In this document: positions 50,295 to 52,739 of the stretch, in pieces
Position numbering within the stretch: the stretch's first letter is position 1
How the letters are laid out: the number at the start of each line of letters is the position of its first letter
Assembly: GCF_038446525.1 (NCBI RefSeq)
Contig: NZ_CP151792.1
Span: 2,232,001 to 2,296,000, forward strand
From: Methanolobus sp. ZRKC5
GTDB taxonomy: Archaea; Halobacteriota; Methanosarcinia; Methanosarcinales; Methanosarcinaceae
Length of the DNA: 64,000 nt
Reading direction: 5' to 3'
Made by a program: the position numbers and the translations under genes
Notes under the pieces: model-generated
Database searches by the model: none
What the model was told of the DNA's origin: nothing
Seen by the model: the letters and a program-made list of their open reading frames with translations, nothing else

Positions 50295-50906
50295 ATGGCA
50301 TCTGTTGGTCAAAAACTATTAGATGTTCCATTTGGGGACATGATAAAAGAAATGGCTTTTGCTATTGCAGAGGGGCAAACTGCTCTGGACATTAATTCGA
50401 TTAATGTTGCGCAGGCCCTTGCAGAGACTGAACTGGAAGCTGGGAGTGTAATTCTCTATATAGAGGAGACGGTAGATGAGGATGGGAACGTAACTGCTAC
50501 TGATGTAGTTACCAATGATCAACCCATGTCCTTACTTACATATGGTCTTGAACCTCGTTTCTATGAATTCACCGAATCTGTTATTGAAGTCAAAATGACT
50601 ATATCAATGAAGAAGGAGTATTCAACAGAAAGGAAATATGGTAGAGAGTTCAAGTTCACCAACCAGTCGAAAATAAGTGGAAGCTACAAGTCCGGTGGTC
50701 TTGCAGGTCTTCTATTCGGTAAATCTAAGGTAAGCTACGAAAACACAACTAATGTTGCATACACATCGACTTATGATGCAACATATAAGTCAAAGTATAC
50801 CTTCAGTGAATCAGGTACCAGTCTTCTGCGTACAACACTCAAACCAGTGCCACCACCAGAGAGAGCTATCCCAACCGTCAGGGTCAAAGAGAGTTCCTCA
50901 GAGTAA
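50295..50906 (+). CDS. Unknown protein, first of a PASTA-linked cluster
   Basis: A 203-aa soluble protein with no signal peptide or membrane helix. I do not recognise it with confidence. It has an N-terminal helix (PFGDMIKEMAFAIAEGQTALD, then NSI), followed by beta strands (FYEFTESVIEVKMTISMKKEY), then a Ser/Thr/Tyr-rich, probably beta part (KISGSYKSGG, YENTTNVAYTSTYDATYK). The first two elements recur in the next protein, so these are paralogues; it faintly resembles DUF2589-type proteins. GGAGGG before ATG 50295 is a strong ribosome binding site. Predicted to act in the cytoplasm with the next three genes; the role is unknown. Confidence 0.75.
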   Translation: MASVGQKLLDVPFGDMIKEMAFAIAEGQTALDINSINVAQALAETELEAGSVILYIEETVDEDGNVTATDVVTNDQPMSLLTYGLEPRFYEFTESVIEVKMTISMKKEYSTERKYGREFKFTNQSKISGSYKSGGLAGLLFGKSKVSYENTTNVAYTSTYDATYKSKYTFSESGTSLLRTTLKPVPPPERAIPTVRVKESSSE

Positions 50907-50922
50907 GGCAGGTATATGTGAA

Positions 50923-50957
50923 TCAATGCAGTGATATCTGCATTGACAATTTATTTT
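50923..50957 (+). terminator. Hairpin between the first and second cluster genes
   Basis: TCAATGCAG (50923-50931) and CTGCATTGA (50938-50946) form a perfect 9-bp stem with a 6-nt loop, followed by a T-rich tract. It may end or attenuate the first message, giving more of the first protein than of the rest. Confidence 0.65.
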
Positions 50958-50984
50958 TAACAGAATATTGAAGGAGATTATACT

Positions 50985-51392
50985 TTGCCATCCAACAGTA
51001 GCGAAAGTATTGAAGAGGTTCTTGTCAGTCCGCTTTCAACCATATTAAGTGAAATGGGTAAATCCATTGCACAGACACAAAGGGCACTTGACCGTAATTC
51101 CATTGACACACAAATAGAACTTTCAACTGATGAAGCGCTTCAGGAGTTCGATCTTGAAGCCACCTGGTATCACATACCTGAAGTTGATATCGAACTTAAA
51201 ATGGCCCTGTCCATGAAGTATGAGGAAGAAAGGGATTCAAAAAACCGTATACGTGGGTACAAACGGGTCCTTAATGCAGCACCTTTGAATGCTTCTTACA
51301 AATCACTAAACTCATATGATGTAGAGGGTTCAAGCGTTCTTAAGGCGAAAATAGTATCAGTTCCTTCTTCTTCAAGGATAGTGGAAGAGTAA
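50985..51392 (+). CDS. Unknown protein, small paralogue in the PASTA-linked cluster
   Basis: A 135-aa soluble protein starting at TTG 50985, supported by AAGGAGA at 50971-50977. Its elements, LSEMGKSIAQTQRALDRNSID followed by WYHIPEVDIELKMALSMKYEEE (residues about 20-80), match those of the preceding protein. The C-terminal third is short and lacks the Ser/Thr-rich extension. No named domain recognised. It is 16 nt before the PASTA gene, so the two are surely co-transcribed. Confidence 0.75.
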   Translation: MPSNSSESIEEVLVSPLSTILSEMGKSIAQTQRALDRNSIDTQIELSTDEALQEFDLEATWYHIPEVDIELKMALSMKYEEERDSKNRIRGYKRVLNAAPLNASYKSLNSYDVEGSSVLKAKIVSVPSSSRIVEE

Positions 51393-51408
51393 TGAGTGGA
51401 GGGGTGGA

Positions 51409-52488
51409 ATGAGCGATATTACGGAATTAAGGCAGAATATTGAACGGTTAAATAAGTCAACAACTGCTGCATTAAAAAAACAGAGCTATACTCTGCTCCA
51501 GAAGAATATTGTCGGTATAGAATCTGAACTGGGGGCTGTCCAGAGGGAACTGGTGTCTAAAACAGATGTAGTGGATGAGTTGAAAAAAGAAAACCTGGTC
51601 CTGAAACAGGATTATGCTATCCTTGACAACAGGGTTCAGGAAATTCTTAAAGAAAAAGCTGAAAGTGATAAGAAACTGGAACAACTTTCACGTACAAGGC
51701 CTGAGTTATCTTCTGCAAACCTCGTTAAAGCTTTTCGTGATTCCCTTGTGCAGATGGATGAGTCTATAAATTCAGAGTCCTCAAGGGTGGATTATAACGT
51801 AAGTTCTATGAACATCAAACTCAGGACCAATATAGCTGTGAAGGACGATGAACTACGTTTCCAGCTTCCAAAGGCAGACGATGTTATTCCTGCAGACAAC
51901 CTGAGTGAGGTCGAATTCACTATAAATTCATCATCAAAAGAACGCATATTCTCTGATTATATTGATGTGCCTGATGTTGTAGGGTTGGATATGGACCTTG
52001 CAGTATCTATAATAAAGGCTGCTGGTTTTGTACAGGGCGAGGTAATTGAAAAAGACAGTTCTCTTGGACAGGCAACAGTACTCTCTCAGATACCCTCTGG
52101 CAGTTCGGTTGCAAAAGCTGGGGATGCTGTGGATCTGGTCATCTCAAAGATCACTTCAGTTGAGGTGCCAAATATTGTAGGTATGAATCTGGCTTCTGCT
52201 CAAAAAGCATTGGAAGCTGGCAAGCTTCATTCCGGAAAGGTGACTGAACAAACTGATGCTTTTAATGTCGGTAAGGTTCTCAGTCAGTCCGTAGCTGCCG
52301 GGGAGTATGCAGATATTGGAAGTGCAATTGATCTTGTGGTAGCCACTTCTAAGGTAGAGTTCACTGCGGTTTCAGGTATAACTGCAAAGCCTGTAGTCAC
52401 AGGGACTGTGAGGAATGTCAGAGCGGTGTTATCCGACAGGCAGGCCGCCAGAATATCGTCAGTCAGGAAGTCCACTTCCGGGAACTAA
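51409..52488 (+). CDS. Coiled-coil protein with two PASTA domains
   Basis: A 359-aa protein without signal peptide or membrane helix. Residues about 5-95 are a coiled coil (ELVSKTDVVDELKKENLVLK). Residues about 100-175 (LVKAFRDSLVQMDESINSES, then YNVSSMNIKLRTNIAV) look like a diverged copy of the helix-plus-strand unit of its two neighbours. Two PASTA domains follow (about 185-250, VPDVVGLDMDLAVSIIKAAG, and about 251-317, VPNIVGMNLASAQKALEAG), each ending in the LSQ-P/AG pattern. A basic tail of about 40 residues closes it. PASTA domains normally sit outside bacterial cells on kinases or penicillin-binding proteins, so a soluble archaeal one is unusual. GGAGGGGTGG before ATG 51409 is a very strong ribosome binding site. 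Confidence 0.85.
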   Translation: MSDITELRQNIERLNKSTTAALKKQSYTLLQKNIVGIESELGAVQRELVSKTDVVDELKKENLVLKQDYAILDNRVQEILKEKAESDKKLEQLSRTRPELSSANLVKAFRDSLVQMDESINSESSRVDYNVSSMNIKLRTNIAVKDDELRFQLPKADDVIPADNLSEVEFTINSSSKERIFSDYIDVPDVVGLDMDLAVSIIKAAGFVQGEVIEKDSSLGQATVLSQIPSGSSVAKAGDAVDLVISKITSVEVPNIVGMNLASAQKALEAGKLHSGKVTEQTDAFNVGKVLSQSVAAGEYADIGSAIDLVVATSKVEFTAVSGITAKPVVTGTVRNVRAVLSDRQAARISSVRKSTSGN

Positions 52489-52493
52489 GTTGC

Positions 52494-52739
52494 ATGCCTG
52501 TGGAAACACATATTATAAGGGTTGCCGATAATGCAACCCCTTCTCAGGTAGAAGGTATTCTAAAAGCCCTTGTTGGTGTGGGTGGGCGTGTTGAGGTTGT
52601 TGCAAACAAGAGCATAATTGCCACTTTCAATGGTGACTATGCAGGTTTGATAAAGGGAAAACCCGGTGTCCAGCTTGTTGGAGGGGTTAATTTCGGGGGC
52701 AGAACTATCAGGAAAGTTGTGAAACGCAGCTCTACATAA
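52494..52739 (+). CDS. Small protein, possibly subtilisin-propeptide/I9-like fold
   Basis: An 81-aa soluble protein starting 5 nt after the PASTA gene. The order of strands and helices (HIIRVADN, a helix PSQVEGILKALVG, RVEVVANKSIIATF, LIKGKPGVQLVGGV) resembles the inhibitor I9 or subtilisin-propeptide fold; this is inference by pattern only. The last residues are basic. No subtilase gene is in the window. It is the fourth and last gene of the cluster; two hairpins follow before the convergent galU. Confidence 0.7.
   Translation: MPVETHIIRVADNATPSQVEGILKALVGVGGRVEVVANKSIIATFNGDYAGLIKGKPGVQLVGGVNFGGRTIRKVVKRSST

What the first reader, a model, noticed from the sequence alone, without database searches (positions are those of the whole stretch)
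50295..52739. Unrecognised four-gene cluster: two paralogues, a PASTA coiled-coil protein and an 81-aa protein
Four closely packed same-strand genes with strong ribosome binding sites lie between iorB and galU. Proteins 1 and 2 share two elements (AIAEGQTALD / SIAQTQRALD, then VIEVKMTISMK / DIELKMALSMK), and protein 3 appears to contain a diverged third copy between its coiled coil and its PASTA domains. A shared building block in three consecutive genes suggests subunits of one cytoplasmic assembly. No member has a signal peptide or membrane helix. I know no named system with this make-up.
Basis: partly seen in the sequence, partly recalled or inferred. Interest (0 to 1): 0.75.

Follow-up and report, generated by a model that had tools for sequence, protein, structure and literature searches.

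The report
Unstudied four-gene cluster of related proteins
Four neighbouring genes in a methane-producing archaeon make small cytoplasmic proteins, at least three of them built on the same domain, and the same undescribed set recurs as a unit in many archaea and at least eleven bacterial phyla, sometimes beside lytic enzymes, so it is probably an ancient protein machine nobody has studied.

Summary
Proteins 1 and 2 are ancient paralogues (profile-profile probability 99.9%) and protein 3 carries a third copy of the domain between its coiled coil and its two PASTA domains (84%; shuffled controls at most 1.5%). The cluster is not local. P1 homologues with the same partners occur in Methanosarcinales, other archaea and at least 11 named bacterial phyla. 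All 61 untruncated loci have P1 and P2, and 60 carry at least three copies of the domain. P1 evolves more slowly than neighbouring ribosomal protein uL3 (dN/dS 0.03-0.04 against 0.08-0.10), although many related genomes lack the cluster. Pfam, NCBIfam, PHROGs, PADLOC, PDB and the open literature explain nothing except PASTA. The nearest known family is DUF2589, of unknown function, which forms similar tandem clusters; P1 fails its Pfam cut-off but matches it profile to profile (89%). Many bacterial versions sit beside lytic enzymes without signal peptides, but most genomes tested lack contractile-injection tube genes. Best explanation: a cytoplasmic hetero-oligomer of P1, P2 and P3, with P3 as coiled-coil/PASTA tether, accessory in archaea and coupled to lytic effectors in some bacteria. 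The assembly and its function are inferred, not shown.

The parts
50295..50906 (+). P1: N-terminal helix plus beta domain (shared block); founding member of a family found in archaea and bacteria
   Evidence: ORF; AF2 helix 13-44 and long strands 89-99 and 176-185, mean pLDDT 61; homologues; dN/dS 0.03-0.04
50985..51392 (+). P2: paralogue of P1, minimal version of the shared block, TTG start
   Evidence: hhalign P1-P2 probability 99.9; P1 profile hits it in own genome, 56 bits; homologues
51409..51690 (+). P3 N-terminal coiled coil (residues 2-94)
   Evidence: AF2 helix 2-94, high pLDDT over most of its length
51703..51936 (+). P3 middle domain, diverged third copy of the block (about residues 99-176)
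   Evidence: hhalign P2-P3 probability 84 against shuffled maximum 1.5; AF2 helix 102-120 plus strands 127-137, 141-145, 148-152, 167-176
51958..52347 (+). P3 two PASTA domains (about residues 184-313)
   Evidence: Pfam PF03793 E 3e-22; fold match to PknB PASTA, Z 12
52494..52739 (+). P4: 81-aa protein, conserved with the cluster; predicted by eye to be a small alpha/beta (ferredoxin-like) fold
   Evidence: homologues in 35 of 112 family genomes, in the same cluster; alignment A7; no family or PDB match

Best explanation
P1-P4 are the core of an undescribed, widespread cytoplasmic protein assembly. P1, P2 and P3 each carry one copy of the same helix-plus-beta domain (shown by profiles) and probably co-assemble through it into a hetero-oligomer (inferred). 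P3 adds a rod-like coiled coil and a variable number of PASTA domains that tether or space the particle or bind a partner (inferred). P4 is a small accessory subunit, conserved in the four-gene version (shown), role unknown. In archaea of this family the cluster is accessory. In some bacteria the same core sits in one operon with TPR proteins, a charged low-complexity protein and lytic enzymes without signal peptides, so there it most likely holds, delivers or controls such effectors (inferred from gene order only).
For: Shared domain: (P1 and P2 each one side of a branch with full support, so the duplication predates the spread). Cluster conservation: all 61 untruncated loci have P2, 60 of 61 have at least three copies of the block; same order P1-P2-P3-P4 in 29 loci, P4-P1-P2-P3 in 8, P2-P3-P1-P1 in 19. 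Purifying selection: P1 dN/dS 0.03-0.04, P2 0.04-0.07, below iorA and uL3 for P1. Presence and absence as a unit in the family: P1 40, P2 38, P3 35, P4 35 of 112 genomes, largely the same genomes. No export signal. Bacterial neighbours: Amidase_2, GH108 muramidase, M15-like/PG-binding, Zn-dependent phospholipase C, DUF6765, C25-like protease, alpha/beta hydrolase-like, eCIS_core-like with HEVCH, none checked with a signal-peptide-like N-terminus.
Against: No experimental or predicted complex. The P1 model has pLDDT 61 with residues 101-174 disordered. Neighbour enzymes are absent from the archaeal four-gene clusters examined, the neighbour survey was by eye without a random-gene control, and several neighbour assignments are sub-threshold (C25, eCIS_core, alpha/beta hydrolase). 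PASTA domains in archaea without murein argue against a simple cell-wall role.
Confidence: 0.45

Rival explanations
1. A cytoplasmic stress, regulatory or metabolic scaffold unrelated to conflict: the proteins form a sensor or storage platform, and the lytic neighbours in bacteria are coincidental or lineage-specific add-ons.
For: Archaeal clusters have housekeeping neighbours (ior, galU, rpl3). P1 is extremely conserved, unlike fast-evolving conflict proteins. DUF2589 genes AF0414-AF0417 of Archaeoglobus respond to growth substrate (PMC3949148).
Against: Patchy presence with decayed remnants and repeated linkage to different lytic enzymes in unrelated bacteria.
Confidence: 0.3
2. Part of, or a helper for, extracellular contractile injection systems (phage-tail-like machines).
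For: A T4 gp19 tail-tube gene lies directly upstream of P4-P1-P2 in L178; weak eCIS_core matches in L219 and L221; linked enzymes resemble tail-machine effectors.
Against: gp19 is absent from the window's genome; 10 of 17 gp19-positive and 30 of 95 gp19-negative Methanosarcinaceae genomes have P1. Only 6 of 20 P1-bearing genomes tested have gp19.
Confidence: 0.08
3. An anti-phage defence or conflict module in which the shared domain, like the Trypco domains of predicted conflict systems, is an adaptor.
For: Weak Trypco1/Trypco2 matches to relatives of the P3 domain, best E 0.001; Trypco domains were described in predicted conflict systems (PMC7159879).
Against: PADLOC gives only PASTA-kinase and coiled-coil matches; no NTPase or MoxR/vWA partners; no hit above Trypco2's cut-off; no nearby defence genes seen.
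Confidence: 0.12

Closest known systems
DUF2589 (Pfam PF11655), function unknown
   Same: Full-length profile match to P1 (probability 89.5 over 165 columns; shuffled maximum 2.4). Also in tandem clusters: DUF2589a, DUF2589b and a third protein that matches P2 (92.7) and P3 (72).
   Different: P1 and P2 are not hit by the Pfam model; no PASTA or coiled-coil gene and no P4 was seen in the Archaeoglobales-type DUF2589 clusters examined.
Trypco1/Trypco2 (PF19493/PF19631)
   Same: Helix followed by a GxVELEL-type strand; P3-domain relatives score weakly.
   Different: Below cut-off, partial alignments, no trypsin or vWA-MoxR partners.
PASTA-domain Ser/Thr kinases and penicillin-binding proteins
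   Same: Two PASTA domains in P3.
   Different: No kinase or transpeptidase domain, no membrane helix.

Membership tests
DUF2589 (PF11655) | Pfam model match at the gathering cut-off | tested here: not met
   No PF11655 hit in hmmscan of P1-P4 at E<=1 or in the own genome
DUF2589 (PF11655) | Homology by profile-profile comparison | tested here: met
   P1 probability 89.5, score 47.3 against shuffled maximum 20.7; supports distant kinship only
PASTA domain (PF03793) | Pfam model match at the gathering cut-off | tested here: met
   P3: 78.7 bits against 23.2
PASTA-type Ser/Thr kinase | Kinase domain and membrane helix | tested here: not met
   No kinase hit; no hydrophobic segment
Trypco2 (PF19631) | Match at the gathering cut-off | tested here: inconclusive
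   Relatives only, best E 0.001, 19.7 bits against 24.2; P3 itself no hit
Extracellular contractile injection system | Tail-tube protein (gp19) encoded in the genome | tested here: not met
   None in own genome; 6 of 20 other genomes. Sheath genes were not searched
Known anti-phage defence system (PADLOC) | Match to a defence-system protein model beyond common domains | tested here: not met
   Only PASTA-kinase (PD-T4-6) and coiled-coil matches
Polymorphic or injected toxin system | Demonstrated transport or toxicity | not testable with these tools
   Only gene neighbourhoods available

The most novel reading that the evidence does not exclude
An ancient, so far undescribed prokaryotic protein machine shared by archaea and many bacterial phyla, in which three or more paralogues of one domain build a cytoplasmic particle that carries and deploys lytic enzymes lacking export signals, without any contractile tail apparatus.
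Probability: 0.2. Interest if true: 0.88.

Novelty: categorically new. Interest (0 to 1): 0.62.

Why it matters
A gene set this conserved, this widespread and this strictly linked, yet outside every family library tried, marks a basic cellular assembly that has been overlooked. It also gives DUF2589 a genomic context: a superfamily whose members, in the loci examined here, come as several tandem copies of one block. Small, soluble proteins and culturable hosts (Methanolobus, Methanosarcina, Corallococcus) make it directly testable.

Tried and rejected
Pfam, NCBIfam, PHROGs and PADLOC on P1-P4: nothing but PASTA, coiled-coil noise and chance hits. PDB sequence search: only PASTA for P3, nothing credible for P1, P2, P4. 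Foldseek/VIA: no credible match for P1 (its model is of low confidence, so this says little), only PASTA for P3. Viral contigs and phage records: no relatives; plasmids: one partial. Contractile-injection link: tested with gp19 and not supported as a requirement. Trypco2 genome search: no bona fide relatives in archaea, a few weak ones in Corallococcus. Literature: nothing found on the cluster. One wrong-strand ORF in alignment A1 was noticed and removed (A3); the first DUF2589 alignment held wrong ORFs and was rebuilt.

Full report
The window lies in a complete 3.05 Mb archaeal genome whose nearest named relatives are Methanolobus. The four ORFs exist as described. Gaps between genes are 78, 16 and 5 bp. 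P2 starts with TTG behind AAGGAG; P4 lacks a clear ribosome-binding site.

Known families. Pfam, NCBIfam, PHROGs and PADLOC recognise only the two PASTA domains of P3, apart from coiled-coil noise. No PDB sequence matches P1, P2 or P4 credibly. AlphaFold gave P3 a good model (pLDDT 80): coiled coil 2-94, a helix-plus-four-strand domain 102-176, two PASTA domains, disordered tail. P1 gave a weak model (pLDDT 61) with the same plan of helix, long strand, insert, long final strand.

The shared block. Profiles from 128 P1, 87 P2 and 68 P3-domain sequences give P1-P2 probability 99.86 (E 2.5e-31) and P2-P3 84 (E 7e-6); P1-P3 directly is not significant (2.4). P4 is unrelated. Sixty column-shuffled P3 profiles never exceeded 1.5 against P2. 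In a tree of 153 domains, P1 and P2 each form one side of a fully supported branch although both span archaea and bacteria, so the duplication is older than the spread of the cluster (quick tree, some long branches).

Distribution. In 112 genomes of the same family P1 occurs in 40, P2 in 38, P3 and P4 in 35 each, in 7-8 of 14 genera and largely in the same genomes. In the loci examined the cluster lies near the rpl3 ribosomal operon, in Methanosarcina as well, and some genomes keep only remnants there (G081 P1 with a stop, G074 a P4 fragment, G094 and G098 truncated P1), so it looks vertically inherited and repeatedly lost. A scan of 84,980 species with a P1 alignment returned 80 loci (capped, strict patterns, hence a minimum): 40 archaeal and 40 bacterial, the latter from Bacillota, Myxococcota, Aquificota, Pseudomonadota, Bacteroidota, Actinomycetota, Thermodesulfobacteriota, Fibrobacterota, Planctomycetota, Hydrogenedentota and Spirochaetota. 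A profile search of 393 genomes of the window's phylum found 38 positive in 17 of 136 genera, including genomes of haloarchaeal appearance (the tool does not name those genomes).

Architectures. Type I: P1-P2-P3-P4 (29 loci) or P4-P1-P2-P3 (8: Aquificota, Elioraea, Methanocalculus). Type II: P2 fused to helix-hairpin-helix (DUF4332) or L7/L12-like domains and PASTA, then coiled-coil P3, two P1, a charged low-complexity protein and TPR proteins (19 loci, and Methanimicrococcus with further copies). Type III: four P1 (one in Corallococcus with an inserted OmpA domain) and two P2 in myxobacteria and others. All 61 untruncated loci have P1 and P2; 60 have at least three copies of the block. A lasting need for three or more different copies is what a hetero-oligomer would produce; this is inference.

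Selection. Between Methanolobus species P1 is 91-94% identical with dN/dS 0.03-0.04, below uL3 (0.08-0.10) and iorA (0.07-0.09); P3 and P4 are looser (0.10-0.18). Several dS values are near or beyond saturation, so ratios are approximate; the identities (P1 91-94%, uL3 87-89%) carry the argument.

Neighbours. In about half of some 30 bacterial loci with flanks, an adjacent co-directional gene encodes a lytic or membrane-active enzyme: Amidase_2 (L201, L205), GH108 (L209), M15/PG-binding (L211), DUF6765 (L191, L207, L212), Zn-dependent phospholipase C (L212), C25-like protease (L214), alpha/beta hydrolase-like (L180), GH5-like (L188, L189), metallophosphatase (L220), and HEVCH proteins with weak eCIS_core similarity (L219, L221). 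DUF6765 in L191 and L212 is assigned by sequence resemblance to the L207 protein, not by its own scan. None checked has a signal-peptide-like N-terminus. The count is by eye, without a random-locus control. The archaeal four-gene clusters show no such neighbours.

Contractile systems. One locus (L178) has a gp19 tube gene upstream, but the window's genome has none, P1 is only mildly commoner in gp19-positive family genomes (10/17 against 30/95), and 14 of 20 P1-bearing genomes tested lack gp19 (some are incomplete). The cluster does not need such a machine.

Closest relative. DUF2589 matches P1 over its full length (89.5; shuffled at most 2.4), and DUF2589 clusters in genomes that look like Archaeoglobales contain DUF2589a, DUF2589b and a third protein that matches P2 (92.7) and P3 (72). 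The only paper found that names DUF2589 reports genes AF0414-AF0417 of Archaeoglobus as co-induced on lactate (PMC3949148). P1 fails the Pfam model itself, so membership is not claimed. Weaker similarity of P3-domain relatives to Trypco2 hints at a still wider superfamily; Trypco domains come from predicted conflict systems (PMC7159879).

Verdict. The cluster is real, conserved and undescribed in the sources available. 'Categorically new' refers to the gene system, for which no described counterpart was found; its domain has a distant relative of unknown function. The literature library is open-access only and HHpred was not available, so an existing description cannot be excluded.

Noticed in passing
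L134 2081-6661 (G007); also G006, G009: A second P3-like gene of about 1,350-1,540 codons with coiled coil, P3 domain and a long series of PASTA repeats lies upstream of the four-gene cluster.
   Followed up: partly
L287 4088-5642 (-), L291 4934-6624 (+): DUF2589 genes form three-gene clusters whose third member carries the same helix-plus-strand block; DUF2589 itself comes as two tandem types.
   Followed up: yes
L065 5896-8235 (-), G086: Divergent trio in one genome of the family: a 308-aa P1-like, a 106-aa P2-like and a 243-aa P3-domain plus helix-hairpin-helix protein (hhalign 99.2, 84, 96.4).
   Followed up: partly
L067, L068, L069, L136: Decayed remnants of the cluster at the same chromosomal place in other genomes of the family, one (L067) with a transposon-type RRXRR/HNH-like gene next to it.
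   Followed up: partly
L178 510-941: T4 gp19-type tail-tube gene directly upstream of P4-P1-P2 in an uncultured actinobacterium.
   Followed up: partly
L195 3369-5465: Corallococcus P1 homologue with an OmpA-like domain inserted into the block, in a protein with no obvious signal peptide.
   Followed up: no
L191, L213, L219, L221: Shared motif (M/L)QFLHSM(D/A) in otherwise different large proteins beside the clusters.
   Followed up: no
L139 2567-5315 and 9158-10279: Extra genes, among them one that looks like TruD, lie between ior and the cluster in a related genome; an apparent transposase gene lies between galU and rpl3.
   Followed up: no
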